Positions 5,088 to 64,000 of a stretch of 64,000 bases of DNA are shown here, piece after piece; position 1 is the first letter of the stretch, and each line of letters opens with the position of its first letter. The translations under genes were made by a program, and so were the position numbers. Below the pieces are notes generated by a model. That model saw nothing but the letters and a program-made list of their open reading frames with translations. It ran no database searches and was not told the origin of the DNA. The stretch comes from Hyposmocoma kahamanoa (taxonomy: Eukaryota; Arthropoda; Insecta; Lepidoptera; Cosmopterigidae), in assembly GCF_003589595.1 (NCBI RefSeq), contig NW_020653993.1:4140963-4204962 (forward strand), written 5' to 3'.

Positions 5088-5990
5088 GATTTATCTGATA
5101 TCAAAGGTATAATAGGCAAAATAACTAATATTAATTGGTATTTCGTTAACTACTCTAGCAAACCACAGATTTTTAGAATGTCTATCTTTGACCGAATTAA
5201 TAGAATGAAATAGTTTTAGGTCATCCGAAAACAATAAACACATAGCTGTGTTAAGAACCTTGGGAAGATCGTTTATCATGAGTAGGAATAAGGTTGGTCC
5301 TAAAATGCTACCCTGACTCACCCCGGACCTTGTAAAATAACGGTCAGATTTATAATTTTTCAATTTAACATAATGTTTGCGGTCACCAAGATAGCTAGAA
5401 ACAGCTTTTAACAAGCCAGGTGCAAATCCTATCGCGGAAAGTTTTTCCAACAGAATATCATTGTCCACTAGGTCAAACGCCTTCTTAAAATTTAAGTAAG
5501 CGGCATCCACCTATCGACCTACATCTATTTGGGATGATATATAGTCAACAAATGAAATAAGGTTGGTAGTGGTGGATCGACCACTCCAAAATCCATGTTG
5601 AACGATATCTAAACGATTACTAACTTGCAGTTTTACGTGAACATTTAAGATGTGCTCAAAAACTTCACAGAATGCACTTAAAATTGCGATAGGCCTGTAC
5701 ATTGTGATTTCTTTAGAAGTGCCTTTTTTCGGGACAGGTGGTACCCATGATACTCTCCATGTACTTGGAAATTGTCCTTTCTGGATCGAGGTTATATATA
5801 TGGAGAAGTGGTAGTTTTAGTACAGACCTACAGTCCATTACTAGGAATGTAGGAATATCATCGGACCCAGCAGGCGAACTGGATTTAAGGCGACGGATTG
5901 CACGGCGCAAATCGTCCACCGAGACATGAGTAATGCGTACAGTAGCAGCATCACTAGCACCACCCGCACGTCATCGCAGGTCATAGGTCT
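5088..5990 (-). pseudogene. broken LINE reverse transcriptase
   Basis: Three minus-strand frames in order (5713-5919, 5511-5702, 5091-5510) together cover the N-terminal half of a non-LTR RT. They show AIRRLKSSSPAGSDDIP, then YRPIAILS-FCEVFEHIL and HGFWSGRSTTTNL, then a motif A of the form FKKAFD, motif B SGVSQGSILGPTLF and motif C FSDDLKLF. The motif A position expected to hold the first metal-binding Asp reads Asn, and motif C is FSDD where FADD is usual. There are at least two frame changes. The C-terminal domain is absent. It is dead. Confidence 0.8.
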
Positions 5991-10539: not shown

Positions 10540-12615
10540 TGCTAGTTTATTTTATTTTTATTTATTTATTTTATCTTAGGAAGACCAACAGCTTTAAAGT
10601 AAATTAGTCGTTAACAGTAAAAACTGAAGGCCAATTATAGGTCCTCACAAACAACAACACAATAAAATGAACCTTAACAGATACACGGTGCACAATTAAA
10701 TCTATGACATACAAAGAAAAGGGAAAAAAAAACGAAGAAATTACTCACTATGACTCAAAAAAATGCCTACTTAGTGCATTCCTTGCCGTAGCCACGCTAG
10801 TATTAAATAGATCCAAATCGAAGGTCATACAAAGAATATTAAAATTATCGCTAGCACGCCACATAAACTCGTTTTGCCTGTAATTAGTATGGGCCGGGGG
10901 TAGAAATAAAAGGAAATTATTTCTCAGTGACTTGGTGGGCACTTTTAGAGATATCTTTGATAGAAGTTCTGGGCAGTCTATTGAACCTGAAGCTATTTTA
11001 ATTAATAACATCAAGTCACTAATATTACGACGCGTTACTAGTGGTAAAAGATGGTGTTTCTTACAGAGACTGTAGTAATTGGAGGAAATGTAAGACTCAT
11101 TCATGCGGTAGCACAGAAAACGAATGAACTTCTTTTGAACATTCTCGAGCCGTGAAATATAGACATCATATCGCGGGTTCCAAATTTGGCTGGCGTATTC
11201 TAGAATGCTACGAACAAATGAGCAAAACAGTATTTTTATAGTTTTTACCTGGACGAAATCCCTAGCACAGCGCATTACGAACCCAAGCGACTTGGACGCC
11301 TTAGACACTATGTTGTCAATATGCTCATCAAATAACAATTTAGAGTCATGTTGAACTCCTAGATCTCGTACAGAAGATTGGCTCTGCAAAATCACGCCCT
11401 TAAGAGAATAATTAAACAGCACTAGGTTACGTTTTCGACTGAAAGTAACCAGGCAACACTTTGAAGGATTAAGATCAAGATCATTAACTTGACAGTACGC
11501 TTCAAGTCTATCCAAGTCAGACTGCAAAGCCACCGCATCATCTCGTGTCCTTACTTGCGCAAAAATCTTCATGTCATCCGCAAAGCAAAGTAGATGTGAG
11601 TGCTTAAAGCATCGGTTAATGTCCGCAACAAAGATCACGAATAGCAGTGGGCCAAGCAGCGAGCCTTGAGGAACACCACTAGGAACTTTAACCCAACTAG
11701 ATATATGATTACTCACAACTACCGCCTGGGATCTGCTGTCTATGTAAGACGAGAACCATCTAAGAAGGTCACCAGCGATACCAATACGCGCAAGCTTTAA
11801 AATAAGTGTCACGTGATTAATTCTGTCGAACGCTTTACTATAGTCGGTATAAATGACATCTACTTGCCCTCCCGAGTCCATTGCACTTGCAAGAAAGCTG
11901 TTAAATAAAGCAAGATTAGAAACAGTAGACCGCCTCTTGAGAAAACCGTGCTGATATTGGCAAAATGAGTGACTAAAAGTGAAGTACACTTGGTTATAAA
12001 CGATTTTCTCAAGGACCTTAGAAATGATACAAAGTTTGGAGATTGGTCTATAGTTAGACACATCAGCCTTATTACCTTTTTTGAAAACTGGCGTTACATA
12101 GGCTCTCTTCCAAATATCCGGGACAATACACTCCGTTAGAGATCTTTTAAATAGTATGGAGATTGGAAGGGCAATGGTATCAGAGCACCTAATTAGAAAT
12201 ATTGCTGGGAGCTGATCAGGCCCAGCTGATTTAGCCGGGTCCAATTGCTTGAGTAAGCGGCGCACTTGTGCCTCTACAACCGATATAGTACTCAGTGACG
12301 CTACAGTCTCAGAAGGTACACCAACTACAGGCGAAGAATGAATACTAGATGGCGCTAAAAAAGTAGAATGAAAATAATCCGAAAAAGCGTCACAAATAGA
12401 ATTACCCGTATTAAATGTATTCGCGCGATTTAGTTGTGTTACCTCTCCTTGGTTCTTGCATACAAGCGTGCCTACTACAGATATATTATATGATTTTTGA
12501 CCTTTTTCCTAATATCTTGTCATACCTGTTTTTAATCGCCGTTTGCGTTACCTCCCGACGCAAAAATAGGGGAGTTATAAGTTTAAAAGCTTGTTCTATA
12601 GACCTGAGTGTTAAG
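10540..12615 (-). mobile_element. jockey-like LINE, 5'-truncated
   Basis: The element includes the end of the region upstream of RT, the RT domain, the C-terminal domain and a 3' UTR of about 200 bp ending in an (AAATA)n tail at 10,540-10,575. A short piece upstream of the RT reads in another frame between about 12,510 and 12,615, where the similarity stops. It is therefore 5'-truncated and lacks the endonuclease and ORF1. I could not identify a target duplication. Confidence 0.85.
10748..12508 (-). CDS. reverse transcriptase of jockey-like LINE (partial ORF2)
   Basis: RNA-directed DNA polymerase used for target-primed reverse transcription of the element. The frame is open from a TAG at 12,509-12,511 down to the stop at 10,748-10,750. 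Counting from the GTG codon at 12,265, motif A (YTDYSKAFD) carries the Asp at residue 141. Motif B is SGVPQGSLLGPLLF at 196-209, and motif C is FADD at 228-231, so the catalytic aspartates are all present. The C-terminal region (about 330-505) has the Cys-x-His-poor form usual for jockey-clade enzymes. About 80 further open codons lie before 12,265. A frame change at about 12,508 detaches the upstream portion, and the endonuclease is missing, so it cannot be autonomous. Confidence 0.88.
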   Translation of the reverse strand, partial: EKGQKSYNISVVGTLVCKNQGEVTQLNRANTFNTGNSICDAFSDYFHSTFLAPSSIHSSPVVGVPSETVASLSTISVVEAQVRRLLKQLDPAKSAGPDQLPAIFLIRCSDTIALPISILFKRSLTECIVPDIWKRAYVTPVFKKGNKADVSNYRPISKLCIISKVLEKIVYNQVYFTFSHSFCQYQHGFLKRRSTVSNLALFNSFLASAMDSGGQVDVIYTDYSKAFDRINHVTLILKLARIGIAGDLLRWFSSYIDSRSQAVVVSNHISSWVKVPSGVPQGSLLGPLLFVIFVADINRCFKHSHLLCFADDMKIFAQVRTRDDAVALQSDLDRLEAYCQVNDLDLNPSKCCLVTFSRKRNLVLFNYSLKGVILQSQSSVRDLGVQHDSKLLFDEHIDNIVSKASKSLGFVMRCARDFVQVKTIKILFCSFVRSILEYASQIWNPRYDVYISRLENVQKKFIRFLCYRMNESYISSNYYSLCKKHHLLPLVTRRNISDLMLLIKIASGSIDCPELLSKISLKVPTKSLRNNFLLFLPPAHTNYRQNEFMWRASDNFNILCMTFDLDLFNTSVATARNALSRHFFES

Positions 12616-27835: not shown

Positions 27836-28965
27836 GAGCGTGTATAAAAGCATTGATGCATCTTGATGAGGCAGATGAAGCGACCAGATGGAATTCCAGC
27901 AACAGTCCTGCGTAACTGTGCGCCTGAGTTGTCTCCTATCCTCACACGCTTGTACTGCCCCTCACTTGAGACTGGTGTAGTTCCCATGTTGTGGAAGTTT
28001 GTAAACGTGCAACCTGTGCCAAAAAAGGGAAGTAGAGCTGACCCTGTCAACTATAGACCTATCTCAGTCACTTCCATACTCTGCAAGGCTATGGAACGAG
28101 TACTCAACAACCGACTCCTATCGTACCTTGAAGACAACGACCTCCTCAATGATCGCCAGTACGGATTCCGACGAGGGCGATCTACTGGGGATCTTCTTGT
28201 GTATGCCTGTCACATATGGAGCGAGGCTATAGAAAAGCAAGGCGAAGCACTTGCACTTGCAGTCTTTGGACATTTCTAAAGCCTTTGACAGTCTGGCACG
28301 CAAGCCTTTTAAGCAAGCTTCCATTTTATGGGCTTCCCACTGACCTTTGCAATTGGATCTCGGATTTCTTGAGCTAGGCTACTCTTCGGAACATATGGCG
28401 ATAGATTATAGATAGATAGTTCTTTAAGGTTCCATACTGTCTGCAATTGACAACCATGCCAAGAGGCTTATAGGTGACTCGGAATTAGTGGAATCGAAGC
28501 TGCAGAGCCTTGAACACCGCCGTAAAGTTGCCTGCTTATCGGTATTTTACATGATATATCACGGAGAGTGTGCGATGGAATTACACGATTTAACTCCTCC
28601 TTTCCCTTTCCGTCACCGAGGAACTAGGCGTAGGCTTGGGTTCCACCCGTATGTTGTGCATATTCCAAAGATTTGCACGAAGCGTTACGCTTCCATATTT
28701 ATATGGCGAACGGCTATGGAGTGGAATTCCCTGCCTGCAGATTTATTCTCTGAACGTTATAACTTGGGCCTTTTCAAGGCGAGAGTGAATAGGTATTATT
28801 TAGGTGTGCATGCTCCATCGTCCATCTCATCGCGTCGCGTCCTGTTTTCCAACTACAACACCTGGCGACGCGCGACGACGCTCGCATTAGTGCGTCCGGA
28901 TCACAGTGTGGTCAGCGTCTGACGCCCCACTGCGCTCAAGTAACTAATAAAATAAAATAGTTAAT
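27836..28965 (+). pseudogene. LINE family K, copy 3, RT active site deleted
   Basis: 27,863-28,279 encodes the N-terminal RT region: DGIPATVLRNCAPELSP, PVPKKGSRADPVNYRPIS, YGFRRGRSTGDLL. A frame change near 28,265 precedes motif A (ISKAFDSLA). At about 28,370-28,440 the sequence jumps to the region after RT, and 28,488-28,922 encodes the C-terminus: CLSVFYMIYHGE, EWNSLPADLFSERYNLGLFK. Roughly 700 bp, including the expected YADD-type motif C, is missing, so this copy cannot encode RT. The 3' UTR ends near 28,965. Confidence 0.82.
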
Positions 28966-44049: not shown

Positions 44050-44710
44050 AAAAAGATTTACATATTGGTTGCGGTTTTGAAGGACAAGCGCGTTTGTGAA
44101 CTTCATTCGATTCGTACAAGTTCAGAATCCGAGACTATAAATCTAGAAAACTCAGACCCACTTCGGATATCCGATTCGTATCCGAGAAGATGCGAATATC
44201 GCTAATACATCTAGAGACAAAATAATCCCTGTGACATTTCGGATCGTCATTTTGATTGGATATCATTCTCGAATCGAAAGGTGCTTTCCGAGCTATTCAG
44301 AACATTCGAATTAAACGTTCAATTCGGATTCGGGTACGATATCGTTATCCAAAAGCGTTTACGAGGCTAGTAGTGAAATAGATTATGAGAAAAATTAAAA
44401 TAATTTTGTATTAATTTTTAAGGCTCTAAAGGCCTACAGGATACAGGAATGCATCAGTCTTGCATTAAAGTAATTATTATTACTAATTTTTTTTTATTAA
44501 AATAATAAGACATTTCCATATTATATTCTTGCTTTGTAAACAATAGAACGTTGGGCCACTTTGTATGTTCTGAATAACGTTTGTAACGTTTGCCGGTCGA
44601 GAAGCTCGAGTAAACGTGACGACAGTTTGACGTTCGTATCGGTAATTGTGAATAAAAATGAAAAGAAATCGTACAATATCAAATCGAATCGGTCGACAAC
44701 CGAATTATCG
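44050..44710 (+). repeat. dispersed repeat, family R, copy 1
   Basis: About 650 bp matching, in reverse, the sequence at 57,085-57,562. Shared blocks are GATTGGATATCATTCTCGAA, TCGAATCGAAAGGTGCTTTC, CTAAAGGCCTACAGGATACA, GGAATGCATCAGTCTTGCAT, TTCCATATTATATTCTTGCT and GAATAAAAATGAAAAGAAAT. No protein is recognised. A minus-strand 108-codon frame overlies it. Confidence 0.7.
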
Positions 44711-50825: not shown

Positions 50826-51050
50826 GCAGTAGACCTCCTAGTGAAGGAGTTCATCCAATGAAGTACTGCCACCTTACTAATTTCTGCTGCTAACCAGTAA
50901 TGTGAGCATTACTGCGTTCCGGTTTAGAAGGGTAGAGGTGCTGGTGAAATTATGGGCACATGGGACTTGTCAGCTTATGTCTCAGGGTCGTTTACCACCA
51001 GGCGCGCGACTTGTTCATCACGTCACTTAGTATTATAAATTAAAAAAAAC
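50826..51050 (+). mobile_element. SINE-like repeat, family B, copy 21
   Basis: From GCAGTAGACCTCCTAGTGAA to CAGGCGCGCGACTTGTTCAT and CACTTAGTATTATAAATTAA. It lacks the GCAGTGGCAGTGCCCC block. Confidence 0.83.
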
Positions 51051-55492: not shown

Positions 55493-55742
55493 AGCAGTAG
55501 TAATGCCACGTTACCTATTTCTGCCGCCAAGCAGTAATGTCAGCATTGCATTCACAGCATTGTTGGCGAAATTATAGGCACATGGGACTTGTCAACTTAT
55601 GTCTTTGGGTGACGGGCACAGTGTCAGTGCCCCTTTGCGATTTAAAGCTCTGAGTGCCACTGCACCTGTTATGGACAGGCGTGTAGCTTACCATCAGGCG
55701 CACCACTTGTTCGCCCCGCCACTAAATATTATAAAAAAACCG
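55493..55742 (+). mobile_element. SINE-like repeat, family B, copy 23
   Basis: From GCAGCAGTAGTAATGCCACG to CATCAGGCGCACCACTTGTT and an A7 tail. The first 30 bases are missing. Confidence 0.84.
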
Positions 55743-56192: not shown

Positions 56193-56405
56193 CTAGTAGT
56201 AGAGCTTCTCGTGAAACAGTTCGTCTAGGGAAGTACTGCATCCTTACTTACTGTTTTGAACGGTGCTGATGGTATTACAGACACATGGCACTTGTCAACA
56301 TATGTCTCAGGGTGACGGGCGCAGTGACAATGCCCCTCAGATAGGTTTAAAGCTCTAAGTGGCACTGCAACTGCTATGGGCAGGCGTGTCGCTTGCCACC
56401 AATTG
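56193..56405 (+). mobile_element. SINE-like repeat, family B, copy 24
   Basis: AGTAGTAGAGCTTCTCGTGA start. The core is deleted (ACTTACTGTTTTGAACGGTG). It ends truncated at GTGTCGCTTGCCACCA, so it lacks the tail. Confidence 0.8.
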
Positions 56406-56594: not shown

Positions 56595-57048
56595 AATACT
56601 GACTATGTCTATGCATAACAGTTACGGAGCTTTAAATCGCAAAGATGTTATGGGCACTGCCACTGCGTCCATCACCTTGAGACTATAAGGTGACAAGTCC
56701 CATGTACCTGTATTACCACCAGCGCGCTTACTCTTCAAAACTTGAACGAAATGGTTTTCACAAGGTGCTTTCATCATTCAGCCATACGACGCCCACTGCT
56801 GGGCATAGGCCTCCCCCAACGATCTCCACGACGATCGGTCCTGCGCTGCCCGCATCCATCGGCTTCCCGCGACCTCCACCGCGATCGTCGGTCCACCTGG
56901 TGGGGGGCCTACCCACTGAGCGTCGTCCGGTGCGCGGTCGCCATTGAAGAACCTTTCCGCCCCAACGGCCATCGGTTCTCCTAGCTATGTGCCCCGCCCA
57001 CTGCCACTTCAGCTAAGGTGCTTTAATGCTACTAAATTACTCTAAATA
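56595..57048 (-). mobile_element. SINE-like repeat, family B, copy 25, split by an RTE end
   Basis: 3' part 56,600-56,771 (GCATAACAGTTACGGAGCTT...TCACAAGGTGCTTT). The last few bases resume at 57,015-57,045 (AAGGTGCTTTAATGCTACTA). Confidence 0.82.
56772..57014 (-). mobile_element. RTE-type LINE 3' end with 10-bp target duplication
   Basis: Flanked by AAGGTGCTTT on both sides (56,762-56,771 and 57,015-57,024). The minus-strand frame 56,778-56,972 is the ORF2 C-terminus: EVAGSRWMRAAQDRSSW and LGEAYAQQWA. The tail on the left is short (CATCATTCAG). 5'-truncated after about 240 bp. Confidence 0.87.
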
Positions 57049-57084: not shown

Positions 57085-57562
57085 CAGTTGTCGACCGATT
57101 TCTTTTCATTTTTATTCACAACATCCGAAACGAACTTCAAACTGTCATATTCGAAACCGAATCTAAATGACGTCGCACCCCTACGATTACTCGAACTTCT
57201 CGACCGGCAAAGGCTACAAATGTTATTCAGATCACAGTTATCGAATGAAACGTACCGAAGGTCCCACTGTTTACAAAGCAAGAATATAATATGGAAATCT
57301 CTTATTGTTTTAAATAAAGTCTGGATTTTGTTCAATTTTATTAATTTATTTTAATGCAAGACTAATGCATTCCTATATTTTAGGCCTTTAAAGTCTTAAA
57401 AAAGGGTTTTCCTTTTTTATAATCTATTTCATCGAATAACTCCGTAAACGCTGTTGGACAACGATATTGTATCCGCATCCGAATAGAACGTTTAACTCGG
57501 AATGTTCTAAACAGCTCGGAAAACGCCCTTCGATTCGAAAGCGATATCCAATCGAATGATTC
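57085..57562 (-). repeat. dispersed repeat, family R, copy 2, interrupted by the BEL/Pao element
   Basis: Reverse copy of 44.05-44.71 kb (GTCGACCGATTTCTTTTCAT, TTACAAAGCAAGAATATAAT, ACTAATGCATTCCTATATTT, TCGGAAAACGCCCTTCGATT). It stops at the LTR boundary while the reference copy continues, so the remainder should lie beyond the other end of the LTR element, outside the window. Confidence 0.7.
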
Positions 57563-57769
57563 TGTACGGTGCTCCATACACTTATAAATGATAGTATTAT
57601 AACTGTTAAGAATGTTTATTAGTTTTGATTCACAACTAATAAAGATACATTTGATACATATGAGTACACTGCGCGATGGCTGATTGTGAACTAAATATAA
57701 ATTATAACTAAATGTCGCATGAATACGTAAAATGCCGCATAAACACAATGTACGATATTGCACCGTACA
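57563..57769 (-). repeat. 3' LTR of the BEL/Pao element
   Basis: On the element strand the segment starts TGTACGGTGC and ends GCACCGTACA, a perfect 10-bp inverted terminus of the TG...CA type. It lies about 130 bp after the envelope stop. It contains an AATAAA (on the element strand, near 57,625). The length, 207 bp, is short for Pao-type elements. The pairing partner (5' LTR) lies outside the window, so the boundary rests on the termini alone. Confidence 0.65.
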
Positions 57770-57901: not shown

Positions 57902-60900
57902 CTAGTTAAAATGTTTGCGAAAGACAGGCGAGGTTGCCTTATTAAGTGCGCATGCACTAAGTCGATTCGTGTGACGCGCGGAGTCACGTTGCGAGACAGC
58001 GCTTCCTTCGGGGACAGCGACGGTGGCAAGGGAGCGGCTCGGTGGCGTCGGTGTGGGCAGCTCAGGTGTCGCAAAGTCAGCGGCGGCGAGAGGTCCGTGG
58101 GTACGAACTAATGACGACATGCGTGCGATGCATGCAGAGCGGCGACGTCGATCCCGCAGGCGGCGCCATGCGTAGATCGCGCCTGTGCATACAACAGCAG
58201 CTACTAACACATATATGACAACGTACTGATGTACGTCATGGTAGGATGTGTGATCTTCAAGTATATCCTGGGATTCTTCCATCTTCATTTGCTGTATCTG
58301 CTCTTCTAAGACCTTTATCTGCTTTTTAAACATTTGATCGCTGTCTTTTTCTGCGTTATAGTCGTTGACTGAGACGGAAATGTTGATGATATGATTGAAA
58401 GGAGGAATTTCGACCTTCAAGATGTCTGCTTCAGCGTTCAAATCATTGTTTCGTGTTTTGTGAGAGTATATTGTAAAGGCTTTGTCCTTGATAATGCAGC
58501 CTTCACCCAGTGATATAACTCCAGCAGCATTAAGCTGTTCGGCAGTAACTTGACTCCCACAAATTATGCGTACGGTACATTGACCGCAACAGAAAAATAG
58601 GTATGTATTGACCTTACTGAGTTCTAACCACATGGTCTTGCACTTGACAGTGGTTACAAGACATTGTTTAGCTTCGTTATCCCGTATGCAGAGACTGTTA
58701 TCCGACTTCATCAGGTACGTTGGTCTTCGCAAAGGACACAGGTAAGTATCTACTTCGAATGGAATACATTTGTGAAGATCATCTTCGTTCATTGTTAAGT
58801 ACGAATCTTTGTGCATGTTTATGGCTATAAGACTGGCTATCGGTGTTAGGGTGACCATATTTTCTTGCGCCTTTATTGGGACGGCGATTGTCCTGTAGAT
58901 TTCAAACTGCTCTCGAAAGATTAGAGGTATTTTTATTTCAAATATAAAAAATGACTTAGTCATTTTTGCTCTGACTTTCAGCAAGTGGTAGATCTTCCGT
59001 AATTCAGACTGCATGTTGCTTATAGGTAGTGTTAGTTCCTTTGACAACTGTCCTGATACTATGTTCAGTTCATCTCGTAGTTGTTCAGGTGTAATGAGAT
59101 GAATATTGAACGTGCCATAATGAGTATTTGAGATTGTGTCCAATAACGTATCTTGAATGCTCTTCAGATTAATCAAAACGTTGTTAGCGATGATAGCTGC
59201 TAATACAAAGTCGTTGTTGTTTGATACATTGGATATCTCTGCTTGGAGAGTGTTCATTGCTTTTTCCAAGTCATTTATGTGCTGATTGACGAGCTTGTGT
59301 TGTTTGTCAAAAGTGGACTCTACTCTTTTCAGTAGGTTAAATTGGGCTTCTACTACAGAAGTTTGATTTTTCCATAATTGGGCGAGATGCTTCTCATTGT
59401 CTCTAAGTAATTCGATATCCTTTTGATATTGTTCGGCGAACTGGTTGTCGAGTACTCCGAATAAGGAATGTGCAATGTTGCCTATGCCATTGATAAGGCC
59501 ACGGCGCACGCGCACGCGAGAGTTCATAGTGTCGAATTGCTGTCCGAGCAACATATGATCGTAGTACTCCAGTTCCTTGAATGAGTGACGTAATTGTAAT
59601 GTGACTACGTCACATTGTGCGGGCTTCTTGGCTTTGTAGCATATGTTCGCTAAGTTATTCATATGAGTTGTAAATAGTGATACACCTTGCCAATAAGGAT
59701 TCATATCATAGTAGACAATTAGTTTCCATTCGTCGCGAATTAAATTCATATTCGAAATCTTGTCGAAATAAATCCCTTGATTAGCTTTCAGGCTTTCTAA
59801 ATTGTAGGCACCGTGGGACGGTGATATAAGCATAAAGGTGAGCAGCGCTACAGCCATTGTGATAAGGCTATTTGATAATTTGCCGCGCGCTTTATTTGTT
59901 TTGTTATTTGAAACTTGCGATGTTTTTGGTTTCAGATGGTTTTCTACTTCGCCGCTGCAAGTGTTGATAGGCAATGGTGACAATTTAGTGATAGGTCGTC
60001 GGATAAAACCGTTTTTTGTTTTTATTGTCACCACGCGGACTAGTCCGTCCCTGCCGGGATGAAGTTCAGTAACCCTGCCGAGAGCCCACTTCCCAGGGGG
60101 TAAGTTAGCATCATGGACTATGACAATGTCGTTCACTTGCTGATTTTGCTGCGGGCGATGCCACTTACTGCGTGCGGATAATTGACATAGGTATTCTACT
60201 TGCCATCGTCTCCATATGTCATTAAAAATTTTCTGCGTTAGCTGCCATCTGGTTCTTTCGTCATGTTCTGTCTCAATAATAGTGAGAGTGGGACCGCTCG
60301 CTAGAAAATGGGATGGAGTTAAAAAACTCATTTCATCAGTGTCTTCTGACAATGCGCATAGAGGTCTTGAATTTAGACAGGCTTCTAACTGTGATAGTAA
60401 TGTAGTGAACTCTTCAAAAGTCAATTTTTGTTCACCGATGACTCGTCGCAGATGATATTTTAAACTCTTTACTGCGGCTTCCCAGAGTCCTCCAGCGCTA
60501 GGCCATGACGGTGCGTTGAAGTGAAATTCGATCTGCATGTCTGTTATTTGTGTTAAGAACTCGTCGAGTTTTTCTTGTAGGTTGATGTAGTTTTGTTGTA
60601 GAATTCTGTTCGTTCCTACAAAATTTGTACCATTGTCGCAGTAGACGTGACGTGGTGCTCCACGACGTGCTGCCATCCTGCGCAAGGCTGCTATGAATGC
60701 TGTTGCTGATAGGTCGGAAACAAGTTCTAAATGCACGGCCTTTGTCACCATGCAAACGAATACAGCAATGTAGCCCTTTGTTGTTTTGACGCCGCGACCT
60801 TTGTTAGCCTTTACGTCTACAAAGCCTGTGAAGTCGACACCTGTGTTGTAGAATGGTCTTGTTGGGTTTGTTCTCGCGGCTGGTAAGTCACCCATTTGCT

Positions 60901-62339
60901 GTGTTTGCTTAAGTGGATCATGTCTTCTGCACGTTACGCAATTACGTAGATGCTTTTTCACAGCTCGGTTTCCCCCCACAACCCAATAGTGCTGTCGCAG
61001 GCGAGCTTGAGTTAGACGGGCTCCTCCATGAAATGTGTCTCTGTGGGCTTGATCAATTAGCAAGTTTGTCAGATGACTGCTGTGTGGAATCACCAATGGG
61101 TGTTTCATGCTATCATCAATATTAGCATGTTTAATCCGTCCACCGACTCTTAACAACCCAGTATGATCTATATATGGATTTAAGTTAAAAATCTTGCTCT
61201 TTGACGATAACTTGTCTTGATTTCGTAGGCTGCTGATTTCGGAGGTGAATTCTGTTTGTTGAACTCTCTCTACGATTTTGATTTTTGCTCTCTCAAGTTC
61301 CTCGATTGATAGATAAGATTGCTTGGGTCGGTTGCGTGTTACGGCTCGCAGTACCCAGCCCAGCACTCGAGTGGCGCGTGTAATGCTGCTGTACTTATGT
61401 ATTATGTCATTTACGATGTCGGCGCGTTGCTCCGTCGCGACGTTTGATAATAATGATGTTTTAATTTCTTCATCAGTGACGTAGATATGACGTTCAGCTG
61501 GTTCTTGGTTTTGTGCAAATGATTGTAACCACGACGGCCCAGTCCACCACAATGGATGCTGTTTCAGTTGATCTACTGAGATGCCTCTGCTCGCACAGTC
61601 TGCTGGGTTGTCACCTGATTTGACGTGCTGCCAGCATTCTGCAGGCATTACTACAGTTATTTGTTGAACCCTGTTCGCTACGAATGCTTTCCAGCGGTTA
61701 GGATCACCTTGGAGCCAACCAAGTGCTGCTGTAGAGTCTGTCCACCCAAACACAGTGATATGATGGCCAGATAGACTGTCTTGAACTGTCTTCATAAGCT
61801 TTGACAGCAAAAGACATGCAGTTAGTTCTAAACGCGGAAGGGTCACAGTCTTTTTGACAGGAACTAGTCTAGCTTTTGCCGCTGCTATCACGATCGAGGG
61901 CTGTTGATTGGAGTTGCATGGTTGCTTATTGATTTTGCAGTATATTACACAAGCATAAGCTTTTGTAGACGCGTCACAAAACCCATGTAACTCAATGCTT
62001 TCGTTCCGGCTACTTCCAAACCATCTTGGAATTTTTATTTGATTGATATCTTCTAGTTCTTTTCTGATTTTATGCCATTCCATGCTCATGTTGTCTGGTA
62101 ACTGGTCATCCCATTGCACGTCTTCCAGTAGCCATACTTTTTGAAATAGAAGTTTCAGTGTGGTAGTTACGGGAGAGAGCCACCCCAATGGATCGAAAAC
62201 CTGGGATATTTCAGATAATAGGATTCTCTTGCTTATTGGCTTTGATGATGATGGTTTCAGTATTATTTCAAATGAAAACTGATCACGTTGTGGATTCCAT
62301 CGGAGCCCTAATGCTTTGGTGGAGTCCTGGTGTTTGAAA
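57902..62339 (-). CDS. pol C-terminal half fused in frame to an envelope-like protein
   Basis: The frame is open from about 62,339. Residue numbers here count from the TTG codon at 62,188 (1428 residues to the stop at 57,902). RNase H: D72, E121, D151, D197. Integrase zinc domain: H382, H387, C417, C420. Catalytic core: D452, D518, E570. DUF5641-like domain at about 655-740 (ends RRPITKLSPLP). Envelope part: internal Met 778 with a signal-like hydrophobic stretch 775-793, furin-type site RVRVRR at 891-896 followed by a Gly-rich hydrophobic fusion-peptide-like segment, a coiled-coil-like region 915-990, Cys-rich region 1140-1235, membrane segment about 1321-1340 and a basic tail of about 88 residues. 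No stop separates integrase from envelope. The layout resembles the F-type fusion proteins of baculoviruses and errantiviruses; this is family knowledge, not a search result. Confidence 0.85.
59954..59956 (-). promoter_or_regulatory. candidate splice acceptor for a subgenomic envelope mRNA
   Basis: On the element strand, ATCAACACTTGCAG followed by CGGC places an acceptor-like AG at 59,955-59,956, about 100 bases upstream of the envelope Met codon (59,855-59,857). Envelope genes of insect retroviruses are made from spliced RNA, so an acceptor is expected near here. Position only; no proof of use. Confidence 0.3.
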
Positions 62340-64000
62340 TCAAATGGCTGCTGCTGATTGCTGCCATTTTCGGAGATTGAATCCTCCCGATTTGAGTAAA
62401 TTAATCAAATCTGCTTGTAATTGCCTAGCAGCCTCAATGCTGTGGCTTCCACTGAGGAGGTCATCCATGTAAAACTCTTCCTCTAGTGCTTTTGCTGCAG
62501 AAGGATACTTGAAGCCTTCATCTATTGCCAATTGCTTTAATGTCCTCATGGCGAGAAAGGGTGCTGCCTTAGTGCCATAAGTTACAGTTGTTAGTACGTA
62601 CTCACGTAACAGTTGATCTGTAGAATCTCTCCAAATGATTTTTTGAAGATGTTGATCCTTTTCGTGAACGAGTATTTGTCTAAACATCTTCTCGATGTCA
62701 GCTGTGAAAGCAATCTTATACTGCCTCCACCTTAAAATCAATGATAGTAAATCTGACTGTAAGTTAGGTCCACAGTACATTAAATCATTCAAGCTGCGGC
62801 CAGATGACGTAGGCGATGACGCATTGAATACGGCGCGCAATCCCGTTGTAGTGGACTCAGAACGAATTACGCAATGATGTGGCAGGTAGCAACTTGGTGT
62901 CTCGTTACTTGTACACTCACACATGTGGCCGAGATTGATATACTCATTCATAAAGTCCCTATAATCCTTTGCTATGTTTGGATTTCTTTTGAGTTTTTTC
63001 TCCAACTGAAGAAATTGTGCTACGGCTCGTCGCTTTGATTCTCCAAGTTGTTCCTTGGCATCAGGTTTCATTGGGAGTCGTACGACGTAGCGACCATCTT
63101 CTTGGCGGGTCGTTTGCTGTTCGTAAAGCTGCACACATGCGTAGTCTTCTGATGACATATTAAGGGTATTATCGCCAATATCTTCAATAGACCAAAATCT
63201 GTGAATGTCTTCCATGTTGTTCAAAACTACGTTGCATTGATATGTTTTCACATTTCCACAAAGTAGCCAACCTAAATGCGTCTGCTGAGCTATAGGTTGT
63301 GATAAGTTGTCGCCTTTGATGACACCGCCCAACACGATAAGCGAATAGATGTCAGCTCCGAGGAGCAGGTCTACAGGACGACTGTTGTAAAACTCAGGGT
63401 CAGCTAGAGTTATATTTTGTATGTGTGACCAAGACGGTTTCTCAAAAGTTTGGTTTGGTAAATTGTTGATGAGATTTCGCATAATAAATACATCTGAAGT
63501 GAAAGTGAAATCTCCATGCAATGCGGACATGGTTATCTCCATGACGCCCTTGCAGTTGTTTTCTCTTGCTCCGAGGCCTAAAACTACACCTTTACAGCGG
63601 CGTCGTGGTAAAGCTAACTTTTGAGCAGCATTTTCCGTGATGAGAGAAACCTGAGAGCCTTGATCAATAAGCGCTCTCATGGTGTAACGTGTACCATCTG
63701 CGCCTTTAACTGCAATCAGCGCTGTAGCTAATAAAATTTCAGCTGATTGATTTCTAGAAACATGTGCTGTGCTGTGTGATATAACTTGCTCGTTGTTAAT
63801 TTTCGAAGTCGGCGGTTGCTGTGCCTTTGTAAAAGCGTCATGTAACAAGGTGTTGTGTAACGCTGAGCATTCTCGACACGTTTTTGTAGAAAAACATTTA
63901 TTGTCGGTATGATCATAAAGACAATTGGTGCAAAGTTTCAATTTATTTGCAGTTTTCAATTTCATGTCGCTTGTTAGCGACAAAAAGTTTTTACAATGAA
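62340..64000 (-). CDS. gag end, protease and reverse transcriptase of the BEL/Pao element (partial)
   Basis: Open from the right window edge to a TGA at about 62,338-62,340. Numbering from the TTG codon at 63,983: zinc knuckle-like C18, C21, C30 then C36, C39, H43, H48; aspartic protease with Asp 107 in LIDQGS (Pao-type, with Gln where most retroviral enzymes have Ser or Thr); RT motif A FTADIEKMF (D429), and YMDD at 505-508. The frame then ends seven residues after LRKW, where the usual Pao polyprotein would continue. The continuation (codons beginning PFDFK) is in the adjacent frame, so a single-base indel near 62,340-62,365 is the likely cause. A programmed shift is unlikely inside a domain. 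The frame is also open upstream of residue 1 to base 64,000. Confidence 0.88.
   Translation of the reverse strand, partial: HCKNFLSLTSDMKLKTANKLKLCTNCLYDHTDNKCFSTKTCRECSALHNTLLHDAFTKAQQPPTSKINNEQVISHSTAHVSRNQSAEILLATALIAVKGADGTRYTMRALIDQGSQVSLITENAAQKLALPRRRCKGVVLGLGARENNCKGVMEITMSALHGDFTFTSDVFIMRNLINNLPNQTFEKPSWSHIQNITLADPEFYNSRPVDLLLGADIYSLIVLGGVIKGDNLSQPIAQQTHLGWLLCGNVKTYQCNVVLNNMEDIHRFWSIEDIGDNTLNMSSEDYACVQLYEQQTTRQEDGRYVVRLPMKPDAKEQLGESKRRAVAQFLQLEKKLKRNPNIAKDYRDFMNEYINLGHMCECTSNETPSCYLPHHCVIRSESTTTGLRAVFNASSPTSSGRSLNDLMYCGPNLQSDLLSLILRWRQYKIAFTADIEKMFRQILVHEKDQHLQKIIWRDSTDQLLREYVLTTVTYGTKAAPFLAMRTLKQLAIDEGFKYPSAAKALEEEFYMDDLLSGSHSIEAARQLQADLINLLKSGGFNLRKWQQSAAAI

What the first reader, a model, noticed from the sequence alone, without database searches (positions are those of the whole stretch)
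57902..62339. BEL/Pao element with integrase and a fusion-type envelope in one uninterrupted frame
The minus-strand frame continues from RNase H and integrase straight into a protein with a signal-like hydrophobic segment, an RVRVRR furin-type site followed by a Gly-rich hydrophobic stretch, a coiled coil, a Cys-rich domain, a C-terminal membrane segment and a basic tail. Most BEL/Pao elements lack an envelope, and where one exists it is usually a separate frame. The intact catalytic residues argue for a recent insertion. This is the strongest candidate for an undescribed retrovirus-like lineage in the window.
Basis: partly seen in the sequence, partly recalled or inferred. Interest (0 to 1): 0.88.

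Follow-up and report, generated by a model that had tools for sequence, protein, structure and literature searches.

The report
Moth retrotransposon with baculovirus-type envelope gene

Summary
Minus strand 57902-62188 is one open frame: RNase H, integrase, then a full-length envelope (signal-like segment, RVRVRR|GLINGIG site, long helices, Cys-rich part, membrane segment, basic tail). The envelope is Pfam Baculo_F (E 2.3e-32); named top matches of its moderate-quality model are baculovirus F proteins. Two corrections. (1) The copy is not intact: protease-RT lies in another frame, and the frame changes within 62343-62404, so pol is broken between RT and RNase H. (2) A single-frame envelope is not unusual here: Drosophila roo, also BEL/Pao with an errantivirus-related env, has one gag-pol-env ORF (PMC3087523, PMC5408687; passages). 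Of 120 listed relatives, 66 carry gag, pol and Baculo_F in one polypeptide; the named hosts are Lepidoptera (a search biased toward fused proteins). Integrase and envelope trees agree (Mantel r 0.87), so the envelope has long travelled with pol. Of 127 fused relatives, 65 lack any Met just before the envelope, which points to polyprotein or spliced expression. Verdict: a decayed new member of a known kind. Recent insertion is not shown.

The parts
62343..63998 (-). Protease and reverse transcriptase part of pol (with a Cys-His-rich stretch, probably the end of gag), open to the window edge; stop codon 62340-62342
   Evidence: RVT_1 29.4 bits (cut-off 29.6, just under) and weak Asp_protease_2 (19 bits, cut-off 24.3); YMDD and LIDQGSQ motifs; RT end matches 95 of 207 relatives
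62343..62404 (-). Overlap of the two frames, in which pol changes frame: pol is broken here in this copy
   Evidence: stop maps of the three minus frames; 94 of 207 relatives carry RT end and RNase H start in one polypeptide
61583..62188 (-). Pao peptidase A17 / RNase H region (lower end by the last motif, approximate)
   Evidence: PF05380 E 6e-39 over residues 1-152; FCDAS, LELTA, GWTDST and GDNPADCASRG at 61981-61583
59972..61075 (-). Integrase: H2C2 zinc finger, rve core with D-D-E, DUF5641
   Evidence: PF17921 8.1e-11, PF00665 2.4e-07 (under its cut-off), PF18701 3.3e-34; motifs
59867..59971 (-). Polar linker between DUF5641 and envelope, in frame, no stop, no Met
   Evidence: translation; 34 residues to the hydrophobic core in the window, median 36 in 127 relatives
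57905..59866 (-). Envelope (654 aa), baculovirus F-type fusion protein, full length
   Evidence: PF12259 112.8 bits, cut-off 24.1; all 24 members of A1 match PF12259; PDB sequence hits 9w4c/9w4d E 9.4e-41 and 7.3e-41 by profile; Foldseek to baculovirus F models
59480..59518 (-). Furin-type site and fusion peptide RVRVRR|GLINGIG
   Evidence: RX(K/R)RG(L/I) in 112 of 137 relatives with this stretch
58166..58222 (-). C-terminal membrane segment (Env residues 549-567)
   Evidence: highest hydropathy window of the envelope, mean 2.27, followed by a basic tail
57563..57769 (-). Candidate 3' LTR, 207 bp, TG...CA with 10-bp perfect terminal inverted repeat and an AATAAA
   Evidence: inverted pair 57563-57572 / 57760-57769; sequence, AATAAA by eye; not confirmed by a second LTR

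Best explanation
A decayed endogenous copy of a Lepidoptera lineage of BEL/Pao elements (Belpaoviridae) that encode gag, pol and a baculovirus F-type envelope in one long frame. Shown: the domain order, the envelope family, the in-frame junction here and in relatives, the break in pol of this copy, and the agreement of integrase and envelope trees. Inferred: the host; and that in intact members the RNA is translated into a Gag-Pol-Env chain, or spliced so that Env is joined to an upstream start. The internal hydrophobic segment then sends Env into the secretory route, furin cuts at RVRVRR, and the class I protein fuses membranes so that particles can pass between cells, as errantivirus Env is thought to do. 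This copy cannot make a continuous Gag-Pol-Env product because of the frame change.
For: Pfam Baculo_F 2.3e-32 and BEL/Pao pol families. 86 relatives of Env, of which 26 carry DUF5641 and Env in one polypeptide. 66 of 120 listed relatives (of 1514 hits) have gag PF03564, pol families and PF12259 together, many from contigs of about 8 kb (counted by hand from the table). INT and Env trees agree: Mantel r 0.867 against at most 0.29 in 999 permutations, 38 of 75 splits shared (77 of 206 relatives used, FastTree, no support values). Furin site kept in 112 of 137. Class I fusion fold. 65 of 127 fused relatives have no Met up to the fourth residue of the signal-like core, against a conserved local start codon. 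roo precedent.
Against: The host is inferred only from named relatives. The 5' half, most of gag and the 5' LTR lie outside the window. No RNA data. The model is of moderate quality (mean pLDDT 69.3, pTM 0.48) and its TM-scores are low; glycoproteins of many negative-strand RNA viruses also match it. The search behind the architecture count used the junction as part of the query and scored only the candidates sharing most words, so it favours fused proteins. Some NCBI proteins are gene models with possible introns. 16 of 137 relatives lack even the looser furin pattern. P0188 and P0193 end 32 residues after DUF5641, which may be a stop before Env or a contig end. P0163 and P0166, long and covering 92-93% of the query, have no Baculo_F listed.
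Confidence: 0.85

Rival explanations
1. Env is expressed only from a spliced subgenomic RNA, as in errantiviruses, and the shared frame with integrase has no function. (This concerns the expression step only; the filing as an enveloped BEL/Pao element stands either way.)
For: Errantivirus Env is made from spliced RNA, in one subclade with the donor inside gag (PMC12992720 passages). Several database gene models join gag or protease parts directly to the linker or Env (P0008, P0063, P0073, P0077, P0078, by eye). In this window an acceptor-like CTTGCAG lies at 59961-59955, upstream of the signal segment (by eye).
Against: The joined gene models use different upstream points, which looks like prediction around broken copies rather than one donor. 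Many relatives keep the whole gag-pol-env frame open, which splicing alone would not require; that sample is biased toward fused proteins.
Confidence: 0.45
2. Env in this locus has been taken over by the host as a cellular gene (Iris-like) and the pol part is debris.
For: Env is open over its full length while pol is broken; one relative is named Iris-A; host-adopted F-type Env genes are known in flies (recalled).
Against: RNase H and integrase are also open with intact motifs, so Env is not preserved selectively; the window's nearest rows in both trees also carry integrase. Promoters were not searched for.
Confidence: 0.05
3. The frame change at 62343-62404 is an assembly or sequencing error and the copy is intact.
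For: The two frames match relatives on either side of nearly the same point (gaps of at most 23 residues in the 25 rows printed), and the rest of what was checked is open.
Against: Nothing in the window supports an error; small lesions are the usual first decay of such elements (established knowledge).
Confidence: 0.2

Closest known systems
roo (B104), Drosophila, Belpaoviridae/Semotivirus
   Same: BEL/Pao pol; one ORF with gag, pol and env; env homologous to errantivirus env (PMC3087523 and PMC5408687, passages)
   Different: The relatives here are from Lepidoptera. roo env is said to have been gained after Drosophilidae separated (PMC5408687), which would make the moth case a separate gain. 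Not tested: no roo sequence was available. [quoted passage not shown]
Anakin elements (mosquito Pao with chuvirus glycoprotein)
   Same: Pao-type element that captured a viral glycoprotein (PMC7642597, passages)
   Different: Glycoprotein from Chuviridae, called a type III fusion glycoprotein (PMC13172572, passages); here a baculovirus F-type, class I-like protein
Errantiviruses (gypsy, ZAM, idefix)
   Same: F-type Env with furin site, fusion peptide and conserved Cys; Pol and Env trees mirror each other (PMC12992720, passages)
   Different: Gypsy-type pol; env is a third ORF made from spliced RNA; LTR ends AGT/AnT, whereas BEL elements have TG/CA (PMC5408687) and the candidate LTR here is TG...CA
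Tas and Cer7 (nematode); Atlas virus (hookworm)
   Same: retrovirus-like elements with an env-like gene
   Different: Env of phlebovirus or herpesvirus type; the two papers seen disagree on which belongs to Tas and which to Cer (passages). Atlas: Phenuiviridae-like, from its abstract start in the listing only

Membership tests
Belpaoviridae (BEL/Pao) | BEL/Pao-type pol families (Pao peptidase A17, DUF5641) with order PR-RT-RH-INT | tested here: met
   PR and RT by motifs and sub-cut-off Pfam matches, and in another frame in this copy
Belpaoviridae (BEL/Pao) | LTRs of 0.2-1.2 kb at both ends (PMC8742986) | tested here: inconclusive
   candidate 3' LTR of 207 bp with TG...CA and 10-bp inverted ends; 5' LTR outside the window
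Belpaoviridae (BEL/Pao) | gag with capsid and nucleocapsid domains; tRNA primer site | not testable with these tools
   beyond the window end; only a Cys-His-rich stretch before the protease is inside (by eye). Many relatives carry PF03564
roo-like BEL element | gag-pol-env in one ORF | tested here: not met
   in this copy pol changes frame in 62343-62404; met in 66 of 120 listed relatives
roo-like BEL element | groups with roo in the pol tree | not tested
   no roo sequence held; superfamily (BEL or Pao) of this element unresolved
Baculovirus F / Env-F family (PF12259) | profile match over nearly the full length above the curated cut-off | tested here: met
   112.8 bits, cut-off 24.1, profile 8-592 of 609
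Baculovirus F / Env-F family (PF12259) | furin site followed by fusion peptide; class I fold; C-terminal membrane segment | tested here: met
   model confidence moderate
Errantivirus | gypsy-type pol and AGT/AnT LTR ends | tested here: not met
   pol matches Pao families; candidate LTR ends TG/CA
Infectious retrovirus | Env mediates cell entry of particles | not testable with these tools
   no experiment

The most novel reading that the evidence does not exclude
Lepidoptera host a broad, long-lived clade of BEL/Pao retroviruses that gained a baculovirus F-type envelope independently of roo, kept it fused in frame to pol while it diversified with pol, and make Env without a start codon of its own, from a Gag-Pol-Env chain released at an internal signal sequence.
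Probability: 0.3. Interest if true: 0.55.

Novelty: new member of a known kind. Interest (0 to 1): 0.3.

Why it matters
It adds a set of enveloped BEL/Pao elements from many Lepidoptera beside roo, Tas, Cer7 and Anakin. That makes it testable how often and from where BEL/Pao elements gained envelopes, and whether a retroelement can make a working envelope from one continuous Gag-Pol-Env frame. My paper searches listed no title or abstract start describing this moth lineage. They cover open-licence papers only and no repeat libraries, and I read passages of a few papers only, so this is weak evidence of absence.

Tried and rejected
Rejected: host or non-fusion origin of the C-terminal part (Pfam, PDB and structure matches point to F-type fusion proteins); Env starting from a conserved AUG of its own (65 of 127 fused relatives lack one there; the core was found by a crude hydrophobicity rule without a control); the idea that the listed relatives without a full Env are truly env-less (of the 22, 14 match Env by BLAST, P0199 runs into the signal-like segment by eye, and 7 end within 32 residues of DUF5641, so nothing can be said about loss).

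Led nowhere: the envelope profile search (94 proteins) listed no named baculovirus or errantivirus protein, so no envelope tree with these could be made (only the candidates sharing most words were scored); the viral-contig scan for Env relatives (49 pattern matches, none confirmed); reading splice donors from gene models (different join points); looking for a second LTR (window self-comparison found only a 72% repeat at 44251-44671 and no other copy of the element); a pol tree with named BEL/Pao references (none held). I first read as showing a lesion without net loss of residues; the alignment ends are too loose for that and the size of the lesion is left open.

Full report
What is there. 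On the minus strand a single frame runs without a stop from 62404 down to the TAG at 57902-57904. In the 4,500 bases 57905-62404 the other five frames hold 65 to 113 stops, and 200 base shuffles had at least 64, so the frame is real. Its first part matches the Pao peptidase family (PF05380, 6e-39), the integrase zinc finger (8.1e-11), the integrase core (2.4e-07, 31.4 bits, just below its curated cut-off of 32.6) and DUF5641 (3.3e-34). Its last 654 residues match Baculo_F, the baculovirus F protein family, over profile positions 8-592 of 609 (2.3e-32). RNase H, integrase HHCC and D-D-E motifs are all present (motif meanings recalled).

The envelope. It has a hydrophobic signal-like start, RVRVRR|GLINGIG at 59518-59480, long helices, a Cys-rich part, a membrane segment at residues 549-567 and a basic tail. 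In the alignment of 24 proteins Cys 367, 377 and 393 and two Pro are invariant, and all 24 match Baculo_F. By profile the only solved sequences found are two distinct 'fusion protein' chains (9w4c, 9w4d; E 9.4e-41 and 7.3e-41); I do not know which virus they come from. The predicted structure (mean pLDDT 69.3, pTM 0.48) is closest in the viral library to an unnamed entry and then to four baculovirus envelope fusion proteins (ranks 2-5), followed by glycoproteins of several negative-strand RNA viruses. In the PDB the top matches are pneumovirus and paramyxovirus F. TM-scores by query length are low (0.39-0.43 for the first five viral matches, 0.31 for the first PDB match), so this supports the class, not details.

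What is broken. Protease and reverse transcriptase are in a different minus frame, 62343-63998, which ends at a stop at 62340-62342. The two frames overlap only in 62343-62404. Of 207 relatives in the box, 94 carry the RT end and RNase H start in one polypeptide, with gaps of at most 23 residues in the 25 rows printed. So this copy has a frame change in pol between RT and RNase H, or the assembly has an error there. Most of gag and the 5' LTR lie outside the window.

The 3' end. A 207-bp stretch 57563-57769 begins TGTACGGTGC and ends GCACCGTACA in element orientation, a perfect 10-bp inverted pair, and holds an AATAAA. This is a fair 3' LTR candidate, of the TG/CA type reported for BEL elements, not the AGT/AnT of errantiviruses (PMC5408687, passages). 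It could also be a small inverted-repeat insert. The sequence beyond it (57096-57556) is 72% alike to 44251-44671, a diverged repeat without the element.

Relatives. An envelope search gave 86 proteins, of which 26 carry DUF5641 and Env in one polypeptide by BLAST and 60 match the Env part only. A profile search gave 94, with no named baculovirus or errantivirus protein. A search with the integrase-Env part gave 1,514 hits, 120 listed; by my count of the table 66 of 120 carry gag (PF03564), pol families and Baculo_F together, at 2,021 to 2,499 residues, the upper value being the tool's length limit. Every named species that I read is a moth or butterfly (taxonomy recalled); many sources are unnamed. 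The query held the junction and only the candidates sharing most words were scored, so this count is biased toward fused proteins. It shows that the arrangement is common, not how common.

Joint descent. For 77 of 206 relatives with enough of both parts, plus the window, tree distances of integrase and envelope correlate at 0.867 (best of 999 permutations 0.29) and 38 of 75 splits are shared; mean envelope distances are 2.2 times those of integrase (FastTree, no support values). The two nearest rows to the window are the same in both trees (P0102 Manduca sexta, then P0006 Spodoptera frugiperda). This fits one old gain, or few, followed by descent together. I could not test loss: of 22 relatives with full integrase but little or no Env, 14 match Env by BLAST, P0199 runs into the signal-like segment by eye, and 7 end within 32 residues of DUF5641. 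Two of the seven (P0188, P0193) end 32 residues after it, about where Env would begin, which may be a stop or a contig end.

Mechanism. In 127 fused relatives the linker has a median of 36 residues before a hydrophobic core (crude rule, no control). Only 62 of 127 have any Met between DUF5641 and the fourth residue of that core, 95 if the whole core is allowed. So a start codon of its own just before Env is not a conserved feature. Env is then more likely made as part of a longer chain or from a spliced RNA that brings an upstream start, as shown for errantiviruses (PMC12992720, passages). The data do not choose between these. RX(K/R)RG(L/I) is kept in 112 of 137 relatives that span that stretch, and a looser RXXR form in 121, in keeping with furin processing. 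Cell entry is inferred from the family, not shown.

Against the literature. The ICTV profile (whole text) says belpaovirids have one to three genes and that some carry an env-like gene of unknown function. roo is a BEL element with one 7,083-nt ORF holding gag, pol and env (PMC3087523, passages), and its env is described as homologous to errantivirus env (PMC5408687, passages; PMC7642597, passages). So both the single frame and an errantivirus-type envelope in BEL/Pao are known in kind. Silkworm and wild silkmoth surveys report env-bearing elements related distantly to baculovirus F (PMC6085415, PMC6563192, passages); the first finds two silkworm elements close to roo by RT, but in the passages read I saw no BEL/Pao assignment of the env-bearing ones. 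My searches listed no paper on this moth lineage.

Verdict. What remains open and worth work is whether the moth envelope was gained apart from roo's, and how Env is released from a single frame.

Noticed in passing
window 57096-57556 and 44251-44671: Two stretches 72% alike over 475 columns, in opposite orientation in the window; the candidate 3' LTR abuts the first one, so the element seems to lie in or beside a diverged repeat.
   Followed up: partly
window 10748-12265(-), 5091-5510(-), 27863-28279(+): Open frames matching RVT_1 (2.8e-30, 3.6e-13, 2.2e-09), possibly LINE-type reverse transcriptases.
   Followed up: no
window 56900-57017(-): Short open stretch KWQWAGHIARRTDGRWGGKVLQWRPRTGRRSVGRPPTRW next to the element, which looks like the end of a LINE protein (recalled resemblance).
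   Followed up: no
window 50939-50988, 55561-55610, 56264-56313: Family of short direct repeats with inverted partners nearby, possibly a MITE or other small repeat.
   Followed up: no
relatives P0188 and P0193: Polypeptides with gag and pol that end 32 residues after DUF5641, about where Env would begin; if a stop, some relatives have env as a separate frame.
   Followed up: partly
relatives P0008, P0063, P0073, P0077, P0078: Database gene models that join gag or protease parts to the linker or Env at differing points (by eye); either predictions around broken copies or hints of splicing.
   Followed up: partly
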